Shown: positions 4,627-13,800 of the stretch, piece after piece
Position numbering within the stretch: position 1 is the first letter of the stretch
How the letters are laid out: the number at the start of each line of letters is the position of its first letter
IMG/VR virus record: IMGVR_UViG_3300020438_003876
Location: 1-23,171 of that record
Origin: a virus
DNA length: 23,171 nt
Direction: 5' to 3' (one strand)
The notes under the pieces: model-generated
What the model was told of the DNA's origin: nothing
Databases searched by the model: none
What the model saw: only the letters and a program-made list of their open reading frames with translations
Made by a program: the position numbers and the translations under genes

Positions 4627-4655
4627 ATTTTATCGTGAAATTGTCTAGGAGACAA
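4627..4655 (-). promoter_or_regulatory. Leftward promoter TTGTCT-17-TAAAAT, leaderless, for head-assembly block
   Basis: On the minus strand TTGTCT (4650-4655) and TAAAAT (4627-4632) are separated by 17 bp. The -10 box ends seven bases before the ATG at 4619. No Shine-Dalgarno is present. The -35 half overlaps the Shine-Dalgarno of the divergent terminase gene. Confidence 0.6.
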
Positions 4656-4661
4656 GTAAAT

Positions 4662-5978
4662 ATGTCAGTACAGTCAGCAGATTGGGAAAAGATCAAAGAA
4701 TACTTGGAGCCAAAGCGATCAGACTATTGGGTAGAAGAACCCTCGCTAACGCAAAAAGTTTTTCTTAAATCCACGAGCAAAGAAGTGCTTTTCGGTGGAG
4801 CCGCAGGCGGTGGTAAGTCGTCCGCACTAATCATGGCTGCTTTACAGTATGTTGATATTCCAAGTTACAGCGCTATTCTTTTCAGGCGTACTTACGCTGA
4901 CCTTGCCTTGCCCGGTGCGTTGATGGATAGGTTTAGAGACTGGGTTGCAAGTTTTGATGATGTACATTGGAACGCAAACATGTACACTGCAACTTTTCCT
5001 AGTGGCGCTCGTGTCACATTCGGTTATTTGAATAATGTTAATGATTATCTTAGATACAAAGGTTCTGAATTCCAATTTATTGGTATGGACGAGGTTACAG
5101 AAATTAGAGAATCCGATTATAGGTATATGTTCTCCCGTTTGCGTCGCCCATCAACTGGTCCACTTTCAACAGTTCCATTAAGGATGCGTGCAGCAACAAA
5201 CCCTGCACCAAACTGGGTCAGGCAGAGATTCCTTGTTGAAGGGGAGAAAAACAAGAGGTTATTTATTCCATCAATGCTGACAGATAATCCGGGTATTGAT
5301 CCAGAGTCTTACAGGTCAGTCCTTCAAGAATTAGACCCTGTAGAACGAAAGCGACTAGAGTTTGGTGACTGGTGGGTAACCACGCTTGGGTCAATGTTTG
5401 ATAGAACTAATCTTGAGGTCATTGAGCCATCTGAAATGCCAGAACTTGGTAAAGATACAATCGTGGTAAGATTTTGGGACTTAGCAGGAACGGAACCTAG
5501 CCAAAGCAATCCAGATCCAGACTGGACAGTAGGAACTTTAGGGGCTTTCCATAATGGAATCTTTTATATAATAGATGTTCGACGGATTCGTGCCAAAGGT
5601 GAAAAAGTAGAAAGATTTATCAAAGATACTGCTTTTGAGGACGGTCCTGAAATATCAATCCGAATGGAGCAAGAACCGGGATCTTCTGGTAAAAACCTTA
5701 TTGATTCTTATGCTAGATACGTTTTGGAAGGGTACGACTTTACTGGACAGCGAGCCACGGGCGATAAGGTTACTAGAGCAAAGCCATTCTCTGCTGCTGT
5801 AGCAAATGGAAATGTAAAATTAATTCGTGCCGACTGGAACACTGACTTTATTGATGAGTTGTCCGCATTCCCAGAAGCCAAAGTTCATGATGACCAAGTT
5901 GATGCTACTGTGCATGCTTTTAATCTTTGTGCAGGTTTAGGTATGGGAGTGCGAAGAAAGATTGAAATCATAATCTAG
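4662..5978 (+). CDS. terL: Terminase large subunit
   Basis: The 438-residue DNA-packaging motor. The N-terminal ATPase has Walker A GGAAGGGKS (residues 45-53) and Walker B FQFIGMDE (137-144). The C-terminal RNase H-like nuclease has acidic residues at Asp273 (RFWDLAGT), in RMEQEPGSSG (about 334-343) and at Asp410/Asp411/Asp414 (HDDQVDAT). The ATG at 4662 is chosen over a GTG at 4635 because AGGAG (4647-4651) precedes it at ten bases. The gene is divergent from the portal block, with only 42 bp between starts. No small terminase subunit is recognised in the window. Confidence 0.96.
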   Translation: MSVQSADWEKIKEYLEPKRSDYWVEEPSLTQKVFLKSTSKEVLFGGAAGGGKSSALIMAALQYVDIPSYSAILFRRTYADLALPGALMDRFRDWVASFDDVHWNANMYTATFPSGARVTFGYLNNVNDYLRYKGSEFQFIGMDEVTEIRESDYRYMFSRLRRPSTGPLSTVPLRMRAATNPAPNWVRQRFLVEGEKNKRLFIPSMLTDNPGIDPESYRSVLQELDPVERKRLEFGDWWVTTLGSMFDRTNLEVIEPSEMPELGKDTIVVRFWDLAGTEPSQSNPDPDWTVGTLGAFHNGIFYIIDVRRIRAKGEKVERFIKDTAFEDGPEISIRMEQEPGSSGKNLIDSYARYVLEGYDFTGQRATGDKVTRAKPFSAAVANGNVKLIRADWNTDFIDELSAFPEAKVHDDQVDATVHAFNLCAGLGMGVRRKIEIII

Positions 5979-6815: not shown

Positions 6816-7766
6816 CTATTTTAGTAGATCAAACACCTCTATCTTTAGACGATGACTAAAATTATCTATCTCTAAAGTGTGTTGTGCGGCATCTATTGCA
6901 TCAATATCTCGGTAAAAATCAATATACTCAATAACCGCATTGTAAAAAGCCCATCGAGTCTCACCAAAAGTGCCGCTATTGTACTCTTTCCTAAACAACT
7001 CTTCTATTTTTGAGTGAACAGACTCTGCGTGCTCTCTTTTCTTTTTGGTGTTTGCTTTTTCAACTGAAGCCACGATGTTCATGGCATCTTTCCGCATTGA
7101 AGTGCCTATTGGCTTTTGTAAAGCATTAATTGAATCGGTCATGACAAGATTCCAGTTGTTTCTTAATTCAATCGCTTCTCCTGCTTCAACGCCATGGTCT
7201 TTTAGGTTTGGCGTGTGTCTTTTTCTTAAATCAAAGTCATAAACGTCAGATGAAACCCTATACACCATGTTTCTGGTGCGGTTAACGTCAAGGTTGTAAT
7301 AACAGATAGGTATTGAGCCGTCATGAGATGACATTAGGACTAAGAAGTTGTCAATTATTGATTCTGTGTCTTGTACCTTTAATGATACAGCACCAAATGA
7401 TATGGCCACAAAGAATTTCCTACCATCATCAAGAACACCGCAACTATGAAGTTTTGCTCTTTTGTTTGATCTAGCAACTATAACTTTTGCTCTTTGTAGA
7501 AGATCAAAGTTCTGAACAACTTCATATCGTTCTTTAACTACTTCCCAACTATCGCAGTGCTGTTTGTTTGGGTTTTCCCTACAGGTTACAAACCTGTTAG
7601 GCACAATAACTGTAGTATCTGAAAGTTTATCCCAAACTTTGACTGGTTCTAAAAATACAGTATAGTCTGCTCCAGCATTTGCGAGTATCTCTTCATCGGA
7701 TTGACTGCCCAATATTGGTGAGGCAAGAGATAGCCATGATTTTTTATCGTGTGTCCCCTGAACCAT
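6816..7766 (-). CDS. DUF932 phage/plasmid-like protein
   Basis: A 316-residue member of the DUF932 (TIGR03299, phage/plasmid-like) family, judged by length and the order of segments: an N-terminal GADYTVFLEPVKVWD region, VPNRFVTCRENP, then FDLLQRAKV, GRKFFVAISFGA, and a helical C-terminal half with RWAFYNAVIEYIDFYRD. The biochemical function of the family is unknown. It is common in phages and plasmids, often near recombination genes. The start at 7766 overlaps the end of the MazG-like gene by 23 bp and has GAGGAAG about nine bases upstream. Its neighbours (MazG-like, ParB-like, PAPS-reductase-like) suggest a nucleotide- or DNA-related role. Confidence 0.8.
   Translation of the reverse strand: MVQGTHDKKSWLSLASPILGSQSDEEILANAGADYTVFLEPVKVWDKLSDTTVIVPNRFVTCRENPNKQHCDSWEVVKERYEVVQNFDLLQRAKVIVARSNKRAKLHSCGVLDDGRKFFVAISFGAVSLKVQDTESIIDNFLVLMSSHDGSIPICYYNLDVNRTRNMVYRVSSDVYDFDLRKRHTPNLKDHGVEAGEAIELRNNWNLVMTDSINALQKPIGTSMRKDAMNIVASVEKANTKKKREHAESVHSKIEELFRKEYNSGTFGETRWAFYNAVIEYIDFYRDIDAIDAAQHTLEIDNFSHRLKIEVFDLLK
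6818..6823 (-). promoter_or_regulatory. Candidate -10 box TAAAAT seven bases before the zinc-finger gene
   Basis: The sequence and distance to the ATG match the promoter at 4627. No -35 hexamer is evident, and no Shine-Dalgarno precedes the gene. Confidence 0.3.
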
Positions 7767-8070
7767 GAAGTTTCTTCCTCGCTTGCCTGTCCTCTAATTT
7801 TTGAATGTTCGCTCCAGCAACATCCCTGAGTGAATAACCAAGTTCTGAGGTTAAATTAGCAAGGTACCACAGCACGTCACCGAGTTCCAACATGATGCTT
7901 TGTCGTGCATCGTCGTCCATTTCTCCTCCGTGATCACGAATAATCTTTTTTAACTTCTCTGCAACTTCTCCGGCTTCACCAACTAAGCCAAGCGTTGTGT
8001 ATAAAATGCCTAAGTCTTTTGGGTAAATTGCTGTCTCTTTTGCTGCTGCTTGATATGCATTAACGTCCAT
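7744..8070 (-). CDS. MazG-like nucleotide pyrophosphohydrolase
   Basis: A 108-residue all-helical NTP/dNTP pyrophosphatase. The metal-binding residues are visible: Glu32 and Glu35 in GEAGEVAEKLKK, and Glu62 and Asp65 in ELGDVLWYLANL, the ExxE...ExxD pattern of the family. Phage MazG-like enzymes are proposed to clear modified or excess nucleotides or lower (p)ppGpp; the substrate cannot be read from sequence. The start overlaps the ParB-like stop (TAATG), with GGAG nine bases upstream, so it is translated as part of the same operon. Confidence 0.92.
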   Translation of the reverse strand: MDVNAYQAAAKETAIYPKDLGILYTTLGLVGEAGEVAEKLKKIIRDHGGEMDDDARQSIMLELGDVLWYLANLTSELGYSLRDVAGANIQKLEDRQARKKLHGSGDTR

Positions 8071-8603
8071 TATACTTGCTCCGTGTGTCCTGTCGGTCTT
8101 TCAATGCGAATGTCTTCTCCAGAAGCAGATTCAATTGGGACCCACGCTGGAGAATAACTATGCTGTTTAATTTTTCTCATCTTAACAAGAGAACCATCCG
8201 CCAAAACATCAAACTCGTCAGAAGTCATTTCAAGTTTACGGCGCAAATCATCATACTCATATTTTCCAGAAGCGATGACTTTCTTTAACATACGGGATAA
8301 GAACTTTGCGATAACTACCCCACGAGATCTGTTGAGGTCTATATGAAGTAGCATGGCGTCAATATCATCAATATCAACCACCATAACTGGAACAGTTTTA
8401 ATTTTTTGCTCGTTAGCAACTGTCCATCTATGGTAACCATCAATTATGGTTCCGTTTGGTTGGCAAACTATTGGCGACAAAATACCATAACTAATAATTG
8501 AGTTAGTTAAACGTCGATAATCGGGTGATACCACATAAGAGGAAGACACCCACTTCGCTGGTTTTAGTTTTGACGCTTTTATTACATCTGCATGTGGTTT
8601 CAT
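8070..8603 (-). CDS. ParB-like (ParB/Srx-fold) protein, downstream member of the triad
   Basis: A 177-residue protein with an N-terminal ParB-like domain: an approach helix (RRLTNSIISYG, about 30-40), SPIVCQPNGTIIDGYHR with the DGYHR motif at 55-59, and VPVMVVDIDD (71-80). The second half is helical with no recognised HTH. The ATG at 8603 is preferred over an in-frame TTG at 8639, which would lie inside the putative -35 box and overlap the previous gene; a promoter (8611-8639) ends seven bases before this ATG. ParB-fold proteins of this class accompany PAPS-reductase-like proteins, for example IbrB with IbrA in E. coli. It is too short, and without a parA, for plasmid-type partition. Confidence 0.85.
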   Translation of the reverse strand: MKPHADVIKASKLKPAKWVSSSYVVSPDYRRLTNSIISYGILSPIVCQPNGTIIDGYHRWTVANEQKIKTVPVMVVDIDDIDAMLLHIDLNRSRGVVIAKFLSRMLKKVIASGKYEYDDLRRKLEMTSDEFDVLADGSLVKMRKIKQHSYSPAWVPIESASGEDIRIERPTGHTEQV

Positions 8604-8610
8604 AATTATT

Positions 8611-8639
8611 AGCCTATCTATTATCGTCAAGTGAGTCAA
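8611..8639 (-). promoter_or_regulatory. Leftward promoter TTGACT-17-TAGGCT, leaderless, for the ParB/MazG/DUF932 genes
   Basis: TTGACT at 8634-8639 and TAGGCT at 8611-8616 on the minus strand are 17 bp apart. The -10 ends seven bases before the ATG at 8603. It lies over the 3' end of the PAPS-reductase-like gene. The -10 keeps only the TAnnnT core. Confidence 0.5.
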
Positions 8640-9789
8640 GGCTGTTTGCGTCCATCATTTCCTGTTGCTCTTGTTTCGCAAGCAATGCCACTCGTTTGTT
8701 ATGTGATTTTGTCCTTGGTCCTACAGGGCTAGGCGTTCCATCAAATGTATTTAAAACAATTGTCCTGACAAGGTGTTCAATGGGGTATCCGTAGGGATCT
8801 TTTGCGTGTCGCTTTTTAAACTCGTGACTGAAGACCATTGCTTCTCTGTGGATACCAGGGGTTAAGATGCTGTCATTGATACAATCTTTAACACCGTTCC
8901 ACCCCTGCTCTGAATAGTGGTCAATTAGTGCCTCAACATCAAACTCACCCCATAGTCTTGTCTGTGCTTCAATTTCAGGAAAGCACCTGTAAAGCCCATC
9001 ATAGAATTCAGGCTCAGTTCTAATAACATCAGTCAATCTTCTGGCCGCAACAGAGTGCAAAGGAATACCAACTCTTTGGTTTGCCCCGCTCATTGCTGCA
9101 TAATCATAATAGGCGCAGTATTCACCATTATGTTCTTCTGTTATGAATTTCAAAACGTCGTCTGATGTCCAGTCATAAATAACTTTTGCAAACCTCATCG
9201 GTATGGCTTTAGACAACTGGAAAGGTCTGTTTATGTAGTTTTCGTGGAGTTTTTGAACAACTGTTCTGTACCTAATCATTGACTCGTTTGCCCGCACTCC
9301 AGTAACAAACGCAGTTAGTCCCTTTTTGCCTTGCATGGTGTACTCATCAATACTGTTGGGAATTGATTCCGCTGGGTCAAGCCCAAAATGCTCTGCTCTA
9401 ATTGAGTTCTCAGGAAAAGGTCTATAAAGTCTTCCCTCTGCTTCACGCATCTTGGACCAAAGTAAAACGTATTCTCGTCTACCTAAAACCCATAACTCTT
9501 GTCCTTGGGGTAAGCAGTACCACTCCATGTCAACCCAGTCGTACTCAGAGACTCTCTTAACGTAGTCTTCAATCGCTGGGGAGATCATCTCTTCGTCTCG
9601 AAAGATAACTTTAACAGGACCAAGGTCACGCTCTTCGTGAATCTCTTTCGCTAAATACAAACAAGCAGTAGAGTCTTTACCGCCACTAAACTGTATTGCA
9701 ACAGAATCAAACCTATCGTAAACATGCTTCATTCTTTGACGGGCAGCATCTACGCAGTTTATGTCTAGGAACATCCTACGTCGTGTCAT
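8614..9789 (-). CDS. PAPS-reductase-like PP-loop protein (IbrA / DndC-related family)
   Basis: A 391-residue protein with an N-type ATP pyrophosphatase PP-loop SGGKDS (residues 35-40). TGVRANESMIRYRTV and IYDWTSDDVLKFI follow, as in phosphoadenosine phosphosulfate reductase-domain proteins. A long C-terminal region is not recognised. True PAPS reductases end in an ECG(L/I)H motif, which is absent here, so sulfate reduction is unlikely. Relatives such as DndC act in DNA phosphorothioation, and IbrA works with the ParB-like IbrB. The gene is flanked on both sides by ParB-like genes, one base from the upstream one, with AGGGG five bases before the start. A role in sulfur or adenylate chemistry on DNA, RNA or nucleotides is inferred. 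Confidence 0.87.
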   Translation of the reverse strand: MTRRRMFLDINCVDAARQRMKHVYDRFDSVAIQFSGGKDSTACLYLAKEIHEERDLGPVKVIFRDEEMISPAIEDYVKRVSEYDWVDMEWYCLPQGQELWVLGRREYVLLWSKMREAEGRLYRPFPENSIRAEHFGLDPAESIPNSIDEYTMQGKKGLTAFVTGVRANESMIRYRTVVQKLHENYINRPFQLSKAIPMRFAKVIYDWTSDDVLKFITEEHNGEYCAYYDYAAMSGANQRVGIPLHSVAARRLTDVIRTEPEFYDGLYRCFPEIEAQTRLWGEFDVEALIDHYSEQGWNGVKDCINDSILTPGIHREAMVFSHEFKKRHAKDPYGYPIEHLVRTIVLNTFDGTPSPVGPRTKSHNKRVALLAKQEQQEMMDANSLDSLDDNR

Positions 9790-9790
9790 T

Positions 9791-10570
9791 TTACCCCTCT
9801 GGTGTGTGGTTTGCTATAAAGTCAAGAAGTCTTTCTGCTGTAGTTTCACCAACCCATGTACCATCATCTTTAAGCCACCTCAAAAATGAATACCATTTTG
9901 ATTGTTGCTCGGCAGAATCAAAAACTAAAGTGAACTGGATTGCCGCATTTGTAGACCCTGATGCGTTTGTAGTTGTACTGCCTTGGGCTACAATCGTATT
10001 AGTGGGTACATCTGTTGGCCTTGGAGGTTCAACTGTGTTTTCAGTTGGGCTTGGGGCAGGCCCTGTAATGTCTTCAATAATTATCTCTGGTGCTGTCCAC
10101 CCAGAGTTGTTGTCTCGTGGTTCTCTTACGAAGTCGCTCTCAATGACTTGGTTTTCAATCACCGCTACAGCAAAGTCATCCCACTCAAGAATTTCAAAAA
10201 ACTCAGTATCGCTTCCTGCTACAGCAGATATCGCTTCAAACAGCGCTTCATTATCTGTTGTACCAAGATCAGAAATTCTGTTATCTGCTAAAGCAAATGC
10301 TAAGGCATCATCAGGGTTTAAGTCCACAATAGACACAGCAATTTGTTGCCAGCCTAGATTCTTTGCTGCTTCAAGTTGGTGATTTCCAGCAATTACAAGA
10401 ATTGAACCGTCTGTATCTTCAATGGCAACGATTGGCTTTACTTGACCAAACTTGTTATATGACGCCATGATTGCTTCAACGTTTCCACGTCGAGCATTAT
10501 TTTCTAGTGGCTTTAACATGTCAACGTCTACTGCCAGTTGTTCTATGTTGTTTGCAATGTTGTGTATCAT
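9791..10570 (-). CDS. ParB-like protein with Pro/Thr linker and C-terminal small domain, upstream member of the triad
   Basis: A 259-residue protein. The ParB/Srx-like domain spans about residues 12-100: NNARRGNVEAIMASYNKFG, VIAGNHQLEAAKNLGW (59-74) and ALADNRISD (93-101). The canonical Gly-(His/Glu)-Arg is replaced by GNHQ, so catalysis or CTP binding may be changed. A Pro/Thr/Asn-rich linker (about 165-208) leads to a C-terminal domain, QFTLVFDSAEQQSKWYSFLR, like that seen in other phage ParB-fold proteins paired with methylases or nucleases. It lies between a coiled-coil gene and the PAPS-reductase-like gene with very small gaps. Confidence 0.86.
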   Translation of the reverse strand: MIHNIANNIEQLAVDVDMLKPLENNARRGNVEAIMASYNKFGQVKPIVAIEDTDGSILVIAGNHQLEAAKNLGWQQIAVSIVDLNPDDALAFALADNRISDLGTTDNEALFEAISAVAGSDTEFFEILEWDDFAVAVIENQVIESDFVREPRDNNSGWTAPEIIIEDITGPAPSPTENTVEPPRPTDVPTNTIVAQGSTTTNASGSTNAAIQFTLVFDSAEQQSKWYSFLRWLKDDGTWVGETTAERLLDFIANHTPEG

Positions 10571-10582
10571 TTATATTCTTAC

Positions 10583-10936
10583 CTAAAACTTCACTTGACT
10601 TCTTACGTTTGCTGCAATGGTTCTCAATGCATCACAAGCAGTTCTTAAAGAATGCAACTTTTCACGCTTTGCTTTTACCAGCGCTTCCGCAACTTGCGTG
10701 TCATAATACAGGTCGCTAGTCTTGTAACCCGCCCAACTCTCTTTGTTTTTCACTGCACCTTCTGCTGCGAGATATTCTTTAAACCATGCCTTTTTATATT
10801 CGGCTTCCTTAACAGCATGATCTTTTGCTAACGTCTCAAATGCTTCAGTCTCTGACTCAATCTCTTGAGTAATTCTAATAAGTTCCGACTCAACATCCAT
10901 CGGACTGATAGGCATATTTCTGTTAGCAATGTTCAT
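10583..10936 (-). CDS. Coiled-coil protein, unknown function, first gene of the ParB/PAPSR transcript
   Basis: A 117-residue, highly helical, charged protein (VESELIRITQEIESETEAFE, then KEAEYKKAWFKEYLAAEG and EALVKAKREKLHSLRTACDA). Predicted heptads run through most of its length. Similar small coiled-coil proteins are frequent in phage genomes, but no function is known to me. A strong promoter ends six bases before its ATG, making it the first gene of a likely leaderless mRNA that continues into the ParB-like, PAPSR, ParB-like, MazG-like and DUF932 genes. Confidence 0.75.
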   Translation of the reverse strand: MNIANRNMPISPMDVESELIRITQEIESETEAFETLAKDHAVKEAEYKKAWFKEYLAAEGAVKNKESWAGYKTSDLYYDTQVAEALVKAKREKLHSLRTACDALRTIAANVRSQVKF

Positions 10937-10971: not shown

Positions 10972-11323
10972 GAGTCCATTCTAAGCGAACTACTTCGTCA
11001 TACCAATCAATCTTTGCTCCTGAAACGCCTCTTTCAAGCAAGTCGTCTAACCATTCTGTGCCAAGTTCTTTTTCAATCCATCTAGCCCACACTAAAGGAT
11101 TCTTGGTTTGCTTCCAATGGCATGACGCACACAAAGCAACAGCATTACGCTCGTCTGTTCTCGTGGCAGAAATACTGCGAGAAATGATATGCGCACATTG
11201 AATCTGCCCTTCATCACGAGTTTTACCACACCATCGACAAGTAAAATTATCTCTCGTCCTGACTACCAAACTGTGTAATTTTGTGGCCTTGGCTTTTGCT
11301 TGCTTTCCATAATTGGTTGGCAT
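10946..11323 (-). CDS. HNH endonuclease
   Basis: A 125-residue HNH nuclease. Zinc-binding pairs are Cys29-x2-Cys32 (CRWC) and Cys65-x2-Cys68 (CASCH). The HNH triad is probably His45 in CAHIISRS, Asn60 in ERNAVALC and His69. The N-terminus is basic (YGKQAKAKATK). The start overlaps the PhyH stop (TAATG). It is a free-standing phage HNH and could nick DNA during packaging or recombination, or be a homing enzyme. No intron or intein is evident next to it. Confidence 0.9.
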   Translation of the reverse strand: MPTNYGKQAKAKATKLHSLVVRTRDNFTCRWCGKTRDEGQIQCAHIISRSISATRTDERNAVALCASCHWKQTKNPLVWARWIEKELGTEWLDDLLERGVSGAKIDWYDEVVRLEWTLDQMTKRA

Positions 11324-12213
11324 TACAAAGGGATGTTCTGATTCAGTGGGAAATACCAGCCACCTTGTTGGTGCTGTATTGCTGGCGAAGGCATATCAGG
11401 TCTATGATTAACGCCAGAGTAATGCAGAATTGCCGTCTCTCTCCACAAGTCAGGATCATTAGGGATAGCACCACGGTGCATGAGTCGAGCGTGCCAAAGA
11501 AGGACATCTCCTTTCTTGGCTAAGAACTTTTCAACGTTTAATTCGCCTCTGTTTAGAATGTCTTCAAACATGGGCGTTAAGAAGCGCTCTGAGTACTTCG
11601 GCCATAACGGATCACGCCTTTCTGATTCTTCTAGTCGAGAAAGCGTTTTGTCTTGTGTAATAATTGGTAAAACGTGTGACCCACGAACATACTCAAATGG
11701 ACCTGAGTCTTCATGGATGTCATCAAGCGCTACCCAAATAGCCAAGTAGTGATCGTAGTTTGAATCAGGGTTAAGGTAACCATCTTGATGCCAGTTCCTT
11801 TGAGTTGACTTCCACCCAGTTAGGTTTAAGTGCACCCCCATCGGTTCACCAATCAAAGAACGCATAATGTCTTGGAGTGGACCAAATGTTGCAATGTTCA
11901 TCAAACTCGGAACTTGATAGTAAGCACATTCACCGGGGTAACCTAATGGCCTATCATGATTTACCCTGTTGTGTTGAATCCAGTCAACACGGTATGCTTC
12001 AATCAGTGGCTCTGGAATGAAGTTGTTTAGTATTACCACCCCATCTTTACGCCAATCTTTTTGCATTTGTGAAAGTGTGGATTCGTCAACTTCTTGTCTG
12101 TCCAATAAAGGCAACAGACCATCAGAAATACTTCCCGCTAAGGAGTTCATTTCATCAAGCAAGTCAGGGTGCGAATCAATTGCGTCGCCCAAAAAGTTAT
12201 CTGATCTACTCAT
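11323..12213 (-). CDS. Phytanoyl-CoA dioxygenase (PhyH)-like Fe(II)/2-oxoglutarate oxygenase
   Basis: A 296-residue double-stranded beta-helix oxygenase. The iron triad is His142-x-Asp144 (NWHQDGYLNP) and His246 (LMHRGAIPN). Arg258 (WRETAI) is the likely 2-oxoglutarate-binding residue. The DDIHEDSGPFEYVRGSH segment (about 164-180) is typical of the family. The ATG at 12213 has GGAGG six bases upstream, better than an ATG three bases earlier. The substrate is unknown: glycans, lipids, small molecules or DNA bases are possible. It lies between two HNH genes, and a second PhyH-like gene occurs at 18423 on the other strand. Confidence 0.9.
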   Translation of the reverse strand: MSRSDNFLGDAIDSHPDLLDEMNSLAGSISDGLLPLLDRQEVDESTLSQMQKDWRKDGVVILNNFIPEPLIEAYRVDWIQHNRVNHDRPLGYPGECAYYQVPSLMNIATFGPLQDIMRSLIGEPMGVHLNLTGWKSTQRNWHQDGYLNPDSNYDHYLAIWVALDDIHEDSGPFEYVRGSHVLPIITQDKTLSRLEESERRDPLWPKYSERFLTPMFEDILNRGELNVEKFLAKKGDVLLWHARLMHRGAIPNDPDLWRETAILHYSGVNHRPDMPSPAIQHQQGGWYFPLNQNIPL

Positions 12214-12706
12214 CATTATCCTCCATCCAGAAAGGCTTAGTCTTTTTTCCTGTGAACCAACTGTGTCGAACTCTTTCAGCCTCCATATAGTGAATGTCTT
12301 TATCTGCCCAAGACGGTAGATGCAATCCTACAGTTTCGGCATCTTTTGGATTGTCAGTAACACGCCTGTGGCAAGTCCGACACAAAGCAAATAAGTTTTG
12401 TCTTTCTAGTATACTACCACCTTGGGATCTGTTTATGAGTTCATGGATGTCTTGAGTCATGCGTAGTAAGGGGTTCTTGTTATTGTCAAAACCTGCCCAA
12501 ATACCACAACCGGAACAATGTGGCTCTTCTGCTAACAACTCTTCTACAATCTTACGCCGAGTAACATAAATCTCTTTCATCTTTTGAGATCGCTGTTTTA
12601 AACGAGATCGCTTCATCTGGTTATCACCACCATTTAAAGGCGTTCGCTTCAATTGGCTATCACCACGCTTCAGCGGAGTTCTTTTCATAGGCTTGCCACG
12701 CTTCAT
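12206..12706 (-). CDS. HNH endonuclease with basic repeated N-terminus
   Basis: A 166-residue protein. The first 45 residues are a Lys/Arg-rich tail made of three copies of a 12-residue unit (KRTPLKRGDSQL, KRTPLNGGDNQM, KRSRLKQRSQKM), probably for nucleic-acid contact. The HNH part has Cys64-x2-Cys67, DIHELINRS with His88 and Glu89, Asn104, and CRTCHRR with Cys109, Cys112 and His113. The ATG at 12706 forms an ATGA overlap with the glycosyltransferase stop and is preferred over a start at 12745. It overlaps the PhyH gene at its 3' end. Confidence 0.87.
   Translation of the reverse strand: MKRGKPMKRTPLKRGDSQLKRTPLNGGDNQMKRSRLKQRSQKMKEIYVTRRKIVEELLAEEPHCSGCGIWAGFDNNKNPLLRMTQDIHELINRSQGGSILERQNLFALCRTCHRRVTDNPKDAETVGLHLPSWADKDIHYMEAERVRHSWFTGKKTKPFWMEDNDE
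12609..12680. repeat. 36-bp imperfect tandem repeat inside the HNH gene
   Basis: 12609-12644 and 12645-12680 align without gaps. They encode the repeated basic 12-mer of the HNH N-terminus, and a more degraded third unit lies to their left. Confidence 0.7.
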
Positions 12707-13800
12707 CGTTTTACGTTTCTCGCTAGTTGACCAATAGTCTTCCACAGTTTAGGTGCACCGACCTTTAGGTCAAACTTCTTAACTGCACGCCATGCTTTAT
12801 CAGACTGCTCTTGTCTATAGTCTAGGTCTACTAATTTCTTCAAGAGTTTAACATAATCGCTCGGATTCTTAGCCAATTGACCAATGCCATGTTTTTCAAC
12901 TAACTCCTCGTATTGAGGAGAGTAAGATGCCACAAACGGAACCCCACCACACGCATATTCTAAACCTTTAATGTAAGACTTAGCATGATTGAATGGAATA
13001 TCTGTTAGTGGAACTATACCAGCATCAAAGGTAAACCCCTTGTGTAACTCAGTTGGTGCCAAGAATGGTGACCTAGAAACAATGCCCGCAGAAACACCAA
13101 TCTCTTTCTCAAACTGTGGTATGTGGATTGCTGGCATATGGCCAGTGTGATGCCACGTTGCAAACTTACTAATTTCTTCTGAATGCGGGCGCAATATTTC
13201 TAAATCACCACTTCTGTGTGCTGTAGAACCCATCCACCCCACAACCATTTTTTCTGCGTTGGAATGAATTCTTCTGTCCTTATACTTCTCTCTATTAACA
13301 AAGTTCGTGTGTAGTAGCGTATTCTCATTCCACTTAGAGATCTTGTTTACCAAAAAGGGAGTTGAAGCGATGACACCATCAGACTCTTCAATTATGTTTT
13401 GATACCAATTAGTGTTTTCTTGTGGGTTGGAGTTTGGGTTTGACATTTGATATGCATGATTCTTTTCACTAAGTCCCCAATACCAGTCATCAACGTCTTG
13501 TAAAACTATTTGACCTGCTGCTTGAGCGCCCTTCATATCAGGAATTACTTGCATGTGCATGTATCTTTGCATAACGATAACGTCACAGTCAAAGTAATCT
13601 TGCTCGTCCCATGTATGAATACCAAAAGTTCCGGTCATTCGATTGTGCGCTAAGATCCCAACACATGCATCATAGCCCAACTCTCTAAATCTCTGCATGT
13701 ACTGGCCTATGCGAATATGCCCAGAGCCACCCATAACAGGGCGACCCAACAAATCAACAACAGACCTTGACCAGTCGTTTGAAGCAAAACCAACTTTCAT
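12703..13800 (-). CDS. Glycosyltransferase, GT-B fold (group 1 / GT4-like)
   Basis: A 365-residue glycosyltransferase. The N-terminal Rossmann half opens with MKVGFASNDW and contains a glycine-rich acceptor loop GGSGHIRIGQYMQRF (about 24-38). The C-terminal nucleotide-sugar half has VVGWMGSTAHRSGDLEIL and the donor-site helix KSYIKGLEYACGGVPFVAS. The nucleotide sugar and acceptor are unknown. Phage enzymes of this kind modify DNA bases, capsids or host surface glycans. The start lies one base after the stop of the coiled-coil gene and only a weak Shine-Dalgarno is seen. It sits in the same operon as the recombination genes. Confidence 0.85.
   Translation of the reverse strand: MKVGFASNDWSRSVVDLLGRPVMGGSGHIRIGQYMQRFRELGYDACVGILAHNRMTGTFGIHTWDEQDYFDCDVIVMQRYMHMQVIPDMKGAQAAGQIVLQDVDDWYWGLSEKNHAYQMSNPNSNPQENTNWYQNIIEESDGVIASTPFLVNKISKWNENTLLHTNFVNREKYKDRRIHSNAEKMVVGWMGSTAHRSGDLEILRPHSEEISKFATWHHTGHMPAIHIPQFEKEIGVSAGIVSRSPFLAPTELHKGFTFDAGIVPLTDIPFNHAKSYIKGLEYACGGVPFVASYSPQYEELVEKHGIGQLAKNPSDYVKLLKKLVDLDYRQEQSDKAWRAVKKFDLKVGAPKLWKTIGQLARNVKR

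What the first reader, a model, noticed from the sequence alone, without database searches (positions are those of the whole stretch)
8070..10936. ParB-like / PAPS-reductase-like / ParB-like triad with its own promoters
A PP-loop PAPS-reductase-like protein without the ECG(L/I)H motif is flanked by two different ParB-fold proteins, one with an altered core motif (GNHQ). A promoter precedes the coiled-coil gene that starts the unit and another precedes the downstream ParB-like gene. MazG-like and DUF932 genes follow with overlaps. The pairing recalls IbrA/IbrB and, more distantly, the DndC part of DNA phosphorothioation, but no dndD, dndE or cysteine desulfurase is seen. It may be an uncharacterised module for nucleotide or DNA modification, for regulation, or for countering host defence.
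Basis: partly seen in the sequence, partly recalled or inferred. Interest (0 to 1): 0.75.

Follow-up and report, generated by a model that had tools for sequence, protein, structure and literature searches.

The report
Predicted new phage DNA-modification cassette
Three neighbouring phage genes (ParB-like, PP-loop "PAPS-reductase-like", ParB-like) form an old module that sits, in related phages, exactly where known DNA-base-modification enzymes sit, so it probably makes an undescribed chemical mark on phage DNA that could be looked for directly in phages already held in laboratories.

Summary
The triad is real and much older than this phage. Across 87 dereplicated relatives (26-100% identity) ParB1-PAPSR-ParB2 keeps order and strand in 45/47 distant and 23/30 close cases. 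MazG, DUF932 and the two promoters are not part of it.

Three results point to DNA modification. (1) In syntenic actinophage genomes a homologous ParB1 is followed, before the terminase, by PAPSR-ParB2 in some phages and by known modification enzymes in others: DpdA/preQ0 genes, Tet/JBP plus aGPT-Pplase2 and kinase, or a DNA methyltransferase; elsewhere by Mom. (2) Distant relatives add either a small methyltransferase or a GNAT acetyltransferase, never both (21 vs 16 vs 0; p = 1e-6), with at least 13 changes between them on the PAPSR tree. (3) The PP-loop protein resembles the adenylyltransferase domain of FAD synthase most closely, lacks the PAPS-reductase ECG(L/I)H motif, and has no invariant cysteine.

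Best reading: PAPSR adenylylates its target and ParB proteins place the reaction on DNA; the resulting group is capped by methyl or acetyl in distant relatives, but by no recognised enzyme in this phage's clade. DNA target: likely. Chemistry: unknown; sulfur is not required. No modified nucleoside has been measured.

The parts
9791..10570 (-). ParB1: ParB_N-type NTP-binding domain (about residues 8-150), low-confidence linker, small C-terminal LVFD...WYxFLRxLK domain; phrog_723
   Evidence: phrog_723 E 2.4e-37; AF2 model pLDDT 83.7, VIA Z 12.4 (rmsd 1.6 over 89) to CTP-analogue-bound ParB; same family precedes Mom, Tet/JBP, DpdA and is fused to a DNA methyltransferase in other phages
8614..9789 (-). 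PAPSR: PP-loop (SGGKDS) adenylyltransferase-like enzyme, phrog_2302; no ECG(L/I)H, no DUF3440 hit
   Evidence: AF2 model pLDDT 94.6; best match human FAD synthase PAPS domain, VIA Z 16.3, rmsd 2.4 over 170; profile match E 1.7e-5
8070..8603 (-). ParB2: IbrB-like ParB-superfamily protein with IDG(F/Y)HR and NR(A/S)(K/R)G motifs and a C-terminal YSxAWxP motif; starts 10 nt after the PAPSR stop
   Evidence: Pfam ParB_N 31.6 bits, phrog_2159, conserved motifs in 64 relatives; directly follows PAPSR in 80/80 close IMG/VR loci
10583..10936 (-). Small coiled-coil-like protein (phrog_1389) ahead of ParB1; kept only in the window's clade, role unknown
   Evidence: 21 of 87 representatives, phrog_1389 E 3.8e-14
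7744..8070 (-). MazG-like pyrophosphohydrolase; operon neighbour, not core
   Evidence: Pfam MazG 39.8 bits; only 5 of 87 representatives
6816..7766 (-). DUF932 protein; operon neighbour, not core
   Evidence: Pfam DUF932 E 7.5e-17; 10 of 87 representatives

Best explanation
ParB1-PAPSR-ParB2 is a phage DNA-modification module that acts on finished DNA rather than on nucleotides. Inferred mechanism: PAPSR uses its PP-loop to split ATP and adenylylate a group on the DNA (or on an adduct delivered to it), as FAD synthase, CysD, TilS and the phage asparagine-synthetase-like ligase CmoY activate theirs. The ParB proteins, NTP-binding DNA-associated proteins, hold and regulate the enzyme on DNA; ParB1 is the general accessory shared with other phage DNA-modification pathways (DpdB-like), ParB2 is the dedicated partner of PAPSR. 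In distant relatives a methyltransferase or a GNAT acetyltransferase then caps the new group, and swapping the cap changes the final mark, as expected in an arms race with host restriction. In the window's clade neither cap is present, so the product may be the uncapped adduct. Shown here: conserved triad, mutually exclusive and repeatedly exchanged caps, occupation of the same genomic slot by known DNA-modification pathways, adenylyltransferase-like fold. Inferred: DNA as target, adenylylation, order of steps, protection from restriction.
For: Order and strand conserved in 45/47 distant and 23/30 close dereplicated relatives, including isolates of Arthrobacter, Mycobacterium, Bacillus and Rhizobium and an Amycolatopsis plasmid with terminase and portal genes. 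Slot exchange: in Bclasvirinae and Gordonia/Rhodococcus phages, ParB1-[X]-terminase-(RuvC)-portal, where X is PAPSR-ParB2, TGT/DpdA plus preQ0 genes, a gene annotated TGT, Tet/JBP + aGPT-Pplase2 + kinase, or methyltransferases; ParB1 is 48-58% identical between Phlyer and Ares, JAMaL and phi1_186018, with TerL, portal and RuvC also homologous for Phlyer, Ares and JAMaL. ParB1 also directly precedes Mom (Pfam E 5e-46). Rosebush DNA carries dPreQ0 in about 28% of G (PMC6884629); its genus mate Ares is the phage read here. Caps: methyltransferase 21, GNAT 16, both 0 of 45 (p 1.1e-6); scan from the HNH gene: 28, 27, 0 of 64; at least 13 changes on the PAPSR tree. The methyltransferase is linked to PAPSR in 42/45 contigs and occurs in 18 phage records, all from groups that hold the module. 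Precedents: CmoY + ParBc in 5-carboxymethylcytosine phages (PMC12783734); ParB-like ATPase DpdB with DpdA (PMC12839542); a CRB2 ParB gene proposed as dpdB (PMC6392294).
Against: No modified nucleoside has been measured in any phage with the triad. GNAT and methyltransferase could act on RNA, protein or a small molecule. The window's clade lacks both caps, and in part of that clade ParB1 is 0.3-1.8 kb away or absent. The slot comparison rests on 12 hand-picked ParB1 loci read from other people's annotation; NHagos and FlyingTortilla there have no recognised modification enzyme, and JAMaL gp2, annotated TGT, matches Tet_JBP only below the Pfam cut-off. HNHx is not strictly tied to the module (7 of 64 loci lack PAPSR). 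ParB/Srx-fold proteins can also be small-molecule kinases (SerK, SbnI). A shared fold shows no function.
Confidence: 0.7

Rival explanations
1. DNA phosphorothioation or base thiolation: PAPSR works like DndC/SspD and moves sulfur onto DNA, with a host cysteine desulfurase as donor.
For: Weak matches to DndC (NCBIfam 1.2e-4; PADLOC 1.2e-6). One near-invariant cysteine, C225 (80/85). Dnd systems include the ParB-superfamily protein DndB (PMC10853773). A host IscS could replace DndA.
Against: Five of 85 relatives lack C225 but keep the other invariant residues; the cysteine aligns with the YCxLYD motif of human FAD synthase, an adenylyltransferase. No other cysteine is conserved, so no dyad as in DndC (PMC12839542) and no Fe-S ligand set. 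No dndD/dndE, SspB/SspC or cysteine desulfurase is annotated in Salgado (whole record), 055SW001 (whole record) or Phlyer (10.1-22 kb not read).
Confidence: 0.12
2. Transcriptional co-activator pair, as reported for IbrA/IbrB.
For: Same two domain types side by side; several phage records label ParB2 as IbrB or co-activator of prophage gene expression.
Against: Does not explain an invariant ATP-pyrophosphatase site, mutually exclusive methyl/acetyl transferases, or exchange of the module with DNA-modification pathways. DUF3440, which defines the IbrA type, is absent.
Confidence: 0.06
3. Nucleotide or cofactor chemistry: PAPSR makes an adenylylated small molecule (FAD-synthase-like) that repairs or blocks a nucleotide-depleting host defence.
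For: Closest fold is FAD synthase; ParB/Srx proteins can be small-molecule kinases; MazG lies next door in the window.
Against: MazG is rare in relatives (5/87); ParB1 matches CTP-binding ParB better than SerK or SbnI (Z 12.4 vs about 7); the ParB1 slot is otherwise filled by DNA-modifying enzymes.
Confidence: 0.08
4. RNA (tRNA) modification against host anticodon nucleases.
For: Many PP-loop enzymes modify tRNA (TilS, TtcA, NcsA; moderate structural Z about 10-11.5).
Against: Two ParB-type partners, packaging-gene neighbourhood and DNA-modification exchange partners favour DNA; no tRNA genes in the window.
Confidence: 0.04

Closest known systems
DpdA/DpdB 7-deazaguanine phage and bacterial DNA modification (Rosebush-type phages)
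   Same: ParB-superfamily partner beside a base-modifying enzyme; same genomic slot before the terminase in sister genera of Bclasvirinae
   Different: PP-loop ATP-using enzyme and a second ParB instead of a transglycosylase and preQ0 synthesis genes; product unknown
CmoA/CmoX/CmoY 5-carboxymethylcytosine system (Synechococcus phage S-B43, PMC12783734)
   Same: AMP-forming ATP-dependent enzyme (asparagine synthetase homologue) with a ParBc-domain protein in many contigs; core modification plus further hypermodification
   Different: no carboxy-SAM synthase or cytosine C5 transferase seen near the triad; different PP-loop subfamily; caps are GNAT or a small methyltransferase
Mu Mom (and ParB1-Mom in Microbacterium phage Phonegingi)
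   Same: same ParB1 family (phrog_723) directly upstream; DNA-modification protein of a phage
   Different: Mom is a single transferase; here a PP-loop enzyme with ParB2, with optional GNAT or methyltransferase
IbrA/IbrB (DUF3440 PP-loop + ParB)
   Same: PP-loop PAPS_reduct protein beside a ParB-domain protein
   Different: no DUF3440, 19-24% identity to two phage DUF3440-type proteins, ParB downstream rather than upstream in those two, extra ParB1
Human FAD synthase PAPS domain
   Same: closest solved structure (Z 16.3) and profile match, including the DW...YCxLYD motif
   Different: standalone phage enzyme with ParB partners, different helical C-terminal region, substrate unknown

Membership tests
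ParB1-slot phage DNA-modification cassette (pattern defined here) | phrog_723-type ParB1 on the same strand, upstream of the modifying enzyme | tested here: met
   phrog_723, 129.9 bits; 24/30 close and 45/47 distant relatives
ParB1-slot phage DNA-modification cassette (pattern defined here) | slot exchanged with known DNA-modification enzymes in syntenic relatives | tested here: met
   met for actinophage relatives, not directly for the window's own lineage
ParB1-slot phage DNA-modification cassette (pattern defined here) | modified nucleoside in virion DNA | not testable with these tools
   needs LC-MS/MS; no report of it was found in the paper library
IbrA/IbrB | PP-loop domain plus DUF3440 in IbrA | tested here: not met
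   no DUF3440 hit at E 0.1 in the window protein nor at E 0.05 in L081, L083, L084; DUF3440-type L086 and L087 do hit
IbrA/IbrB | adjacent ParB-domain gene | tested here: met
   ParB2 directly downstream
IbrA/IbrB | activates transcription of target genes | not testable with these tools
   no expression data
DNA phosphorothioation (Dnd/Ssp) | conserved cysteine dyad in the DndC-type protein | tested here: not met
   only C225 is near-invariant, 80/85; no other conserved Cys column
DNA phosphorothioation (Dnd/Ssp) | DndD/DndE, SspB/SspC or a cysteine desulfurase in the neighbourhood | tested here: not met
   none among conserved neighbours; none annotated in Salgado, 055SW001, or the parts of Phlyer read; IscS from the host not excluded
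Sulfate-assimilation PAPS/APS reductase (CysH) | C-terminal ECG(L/I)H catalytic motif | tested here: not met
   absent from the protein and from the family consensus and invariant columns
PP-loop ATP pyrophosphatases | SGGxDS P-loop and HUP-type fold | tested here: met
   SGGKDS invariant in 85/85; fold matches FAD synthase, CysH, CysD, TilS
FAD synthase (PAPS-domain adenylyltransferase) | makes FAD from FMN and ATP | not testable with these tools
   fold closest, but 18% identity and different partners; kept as 'works like', not 'is'
ParB partition proteins (ParABS) | partner ParA ATPase and parS sites | tested here: inconclusive
   no ParA hit among the genes scanned; the window is a 23 kb fragment and not every ORF was scanned; parS was not searched for
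ParB CTP-binding superfamily | ParB_N fold with NTP-binding motif GxHR | tested here: met
   ParB1: VIA Z 12.4 to CTP-analogue-bound ParB, motif altered to GNHQ in the window; ParB2: IDGYHR. Nucleotide binding itself untested

The most novel reading that the evidence does not exclude
A new class of phage DNA hypermodification: an adenylyltransferase-type PP-loop enzyme, directed by two ParB-family proteins, builds a base or backbone adduct on phage DNA, and phages switch its final cap between methyl, acetyl and none. phrog_723-type ParB1 would then be a general marker gene for phage DNA-modification loci, usable to find further unknown chemistries (for example the GNAT plus formyltransferase slot of Gordonia phage NHagos).
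Probability: 0.6. Interest if true: 0.88.

Novelty: new variant of a known kind. Interest (0 to 1): 0.78.

Why it matters
Phage "PAPS reductases" are usually annotated as sulfur-metabolism helper genes, and phage ParB-like genes as partition proteins or nucleases. If this reading holds, a widespread family would be reassigned to a new DNA-modification chemistry with interchangeable caps, testable at once on phages that grow on ordinary laboratory hosts (M. smegmatis mc2 155, Arthrobacter sp. ATCC 21022, B. subtilis). ParB1 would serve as a pointer to further unknown modifications, with consequences for restriction escape, phage sequencing and new DNA-modifying enzymes.

Tried and rejected
Sulfur assimilation (no ECG(L/I)H motif) and DndC-type sulfur transfer (cysteine conservation). 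The two promoters: not above shuffled sequence. MazG, DUF932, PhyH and the HNH genes as module members: present in 5, 10, 3 and 4-10 of 87 representatives; the nearby glycosyltransferase occurs on either side of the triad in some close relatives but is not constant. ParABS partition: no ParA hit among genes scanned. HNHx as proof of a restriction partner: 57 of 64 HNHx loci carry PAPSR, but an HNH nuclease beside terminase can equally serve packaging. A reverse scan with the full GNAT alignment failed (too divergent); a four-sequence subset found 8 loci, all with PAPSR. Of the three methyltransferase contigs without PAPSR, two (L256, L290) are cut at the contig edge and one (L261) carries an apparent ParB1/ParB2 fusion with PAPSR missing. 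The window assembly is a 23,171-base virus fragment, so nothing can be said about the rest of that genome. Rfam: no hits. Accessions NC_004684 and NC_005259 were not held, so the Rosebush-type layout was read from Ares. A complex of PAPSR with the ParB proteins could not be predicted with the tools allowed; ParB2 was not modelled.
Full report
The window is a 23 kb fragment of a tailed phage, with portal and head genes at one side, a plus-strand terminase at 4635-5978, and a long minus-strand operon that includes recombination genes. Within it lie, in order of transcription, a small coiled-coil-like protein, ParB1 (9791-10570), the PP-loop protein PAPSR (8614-9789), ParB2 (8070-8603), MazG and DUF932. 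Gaps are 1-12 nt or overlaps.

Conservation. From IMG/VR contigs, GenBank phages and GTDB genomes 248 loci were gathered and PAPSR dereplicated at 80% identity to 87 representatives, 26-100% identical to the window. With at least 800 bp flank on both sides, ParB1 upstream and ParB2 downstream on the same strand are found in 45 of 47 distant and 23 of 30 close representatives. The two DUF3440/IbrA-type outgroups (L086, L087) have their ParB upstream instead. Isolated phages with the triad include Arthrobacter phage Salgado gp5-gp7, Mycobacterium phage Phlyer gp1/gp4/gp5, M. abscessus prophage prophi79-1, Bacillus phage 055SW001 and Rhizobium phage P11VFA; an Amycolatopsis plasmid has it beside terminase and portal genes. 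MazG, DUF932, PhyH and the HNH genes of the window are present in only a few representatives.

The enzyme. SGGKDS, D65-E66-E67, W111, R115, GxRxxES..R, DW...D, Y228 and R239 are invariant; the ECG(L/I)H motif of PAPS reductase and the DUF3440 domain are absent. C225 is the only near-invariant cysteine (80/85) and is replaced by S, A, P or T in five relatives that keep the other invariant residues. The predicted structure (pLDDT 94.6) matches the PAPS domain of human FAD synthase best (VIA Z 16.3, rmsd 2.4 over 170 residues), ahead of APS/PAPS reductases (14.5), CysD (14.0) and TilS/MesJ (11.5). A profile search gives the same first hit and aligns C225 with the YCxLYD motif of that adenylyltransferase. 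An adenylyl-transferring PP-loop enzyme is therefore the better guess; sulfur chemistry is not excluded but nothing requires it.

The ParB proteins. ParB1 models as a ParB NTP-binding domain (Z 12.4, rmsd 1.6 over 89 residues to CTP-analogue-bound ParB), clearly ahead of sulfiredoxin (8.8) and serine-kinase relatives (about 7). Its small C-terminal domain (about 212-257) is conserved in the family; it was not searched alone. ParB2 keeps IDG(F/Y)HR, NR(A/S)(K/R)G and a C-terminal YSxAWxP motif and profile-matches ParB/Noc structures.

Interchangeable caps. In the distant relatives the gene next to ParB2 or PAPSR is usually one of two group-transfer enzymes: a small SAM methyltransferase (phrog_11826) or a GNAT acetyltransferase. 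Of 45 representatives with enough sequence, 21 have the methyltransferase, 16 the GNAT, none both, 8 neither (Fisher p 1.1e-6). A second scan that started from the neighbouring HNH gene found 64 loci with enough upstream sequence: 28, 27, none both (not dereplicated and partly overlapping the first set). On the PAPSR tree the label changes at least 13 times over 42 tips and is no more clustered than shuffled labels, so the two replace each other often. The dependence also runs the other way: scanning from the methyltransferase, 42 of 45 contigs carry PAPSR, two of the other three being cut at the contig edge; in 50,697 phage records it occurs in 18, all from Arthrobacter, Bacillus and prophi79-1 phages, the groups that hold the triad. 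A GNAT subset scan gave 8 of 8 with PAPSR. The window's own clade has none of these three neighbours.

The slot. In Phlyer the order is ParB1-gp2-gp3-PAPSR-ParB2-terminase-RuvC-portal. In related phages a homologous ParB1 (48-58% identical between Phlyer and Ares, JAMaL and phi1_186018; TerL, portal and RuvC also homologous for Ares and JAMaL) is followed, before the terminase, by: queuine tRNA-ribosyltransferase (DpdA-like) plus preQ0 synthesis genes in Ares, PenguinLover67 and Typha; a gene annotated as queuine tRNA-ribosyltransferase in JAMaL and Heath (JAMaL's protein hits Tet_JBP below the cut-off); a Tet/JBP-like oxygenase, aGPT-Pplase2 and a kinase in Wooper and Tonitrus; methyltransferases in Evaa; and in phi1_186018 the ParB1 domain is fused to a DPPY DNA methyltransferase. 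In Phonegingi the same ParB family directly precedes Mom (Pfam E 5e-46). Of 12 non-PAPSR ParB1 loci read, 10 carry recognised DNA-modification enzymes; NHagos (GNAT fusion plus formyltransferase) and FlyingTortilla (ParB fused to DUF4417) do not. In contig L337 a ParB and a helicase-DNA methyltransferase stand upstream of the same HNH gene instead of the PAPSR module. The Rosebush relative of Ares carries dPreQ0 in about 28% of its guanines and resists several restriction enzymes (PMC6884629); a ParB gene in this position was already proposed to be a dpdB homologue in phage CRB2 (PMC6392294). Replacement of PAPSR-ParB2 by established DNA-modification pathways beside the same ParB1 is the strongest evidence on function.

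Inference and limits. I conclude that the triad most likely modifies phage DNA after replication, by adenylylation chemistry, with optional methyl or acetyl capping. Precedents are CmoY, an AMP-forming ligase that hypermodifies phage DNA and often co-occurs with ParBc-domain proteins (PMC12783734), and DpdB, a ParB-like ATPase of the DpdA system (PMC12839542). No annotated dNTP-modifying enzyme was seen in Salgado or 055SW001 or in the parts of Phlyer read, which fits action on DNA rather than on nucleotides. The chemistry, the modified base, the role of each ParB and the biological benefit remain untested. The slot sample was chosen by hand and rests on deposited annotation. In ten paper searches I found no description of this triad, of the methyl/acetyl exchange or of PAPSR-ParB as DNA modification; the library lacks most subscription papers and bioRxiv.

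Noticed in passing
L375:1-2473 (Gordonia phage NHagos): ParB1 slot filled by an ABC/GNAT fusion protein (phrog_11143) and a formyltransferase-domain protein before the terminase: possibly another undescribed DNA-modification pathway.
   Followed up: partly
L378:2172-3327 (Microbacterium phage Phonegingi): phrog_723 ParB directly followed by a Mom-family protein.
   Followed up: partly
L379:2771-4351 (Gordonia phage FlyingTortilla gp113): ParB1-type domain fused to DUF4417: a candidate further modification-linked domain.
   Followed up: no
L337:312-3963: A ParB gene and a helicase-DNA methyltransferase (N6_N4_Mtase) occupy the place of the PAPSR module upstream of the HNHx gene.
   Followed up: partly
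L261:3094-3624: Apparent in-frame fusion of ParB1 and ParB2 with PAPSR missing, cap methyltransferase and HNHx kept: natural deletion or assembly chimera.
   Followed up: partly
L369:785-1759 (JAMaL gp2): Annotated queuine tRNA-ribosyltransferase but hits Tet_JBP (E 5.5e-6, below Pfam's cut-off): annotation may be wrong.
   Followed up: no
L248 (Salgado gp98-99) and L250 (055SW001 gp12, gp40, gp44): Amidoligase with glutamine amidotransferase or gamma-glutamyl cyclotransferase genes in two triad phages, far from the triad.
   Followed up: no
window 11323-13800: PhyH-type dioxygenase, HNH and glycosyltransferase genes upstream in the same operon; the glycosyltransferase lies downstream of ParB2 in some relatives (L041-L051), so it could be a cap in this clade.
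   Followed up: partly
PLSDB plasmids: DUF3440/IbrA-type PP-loop proteins are common on plasmids: 448 records matched, mostly Klebsiella and Escherichia.
   Followed up: no
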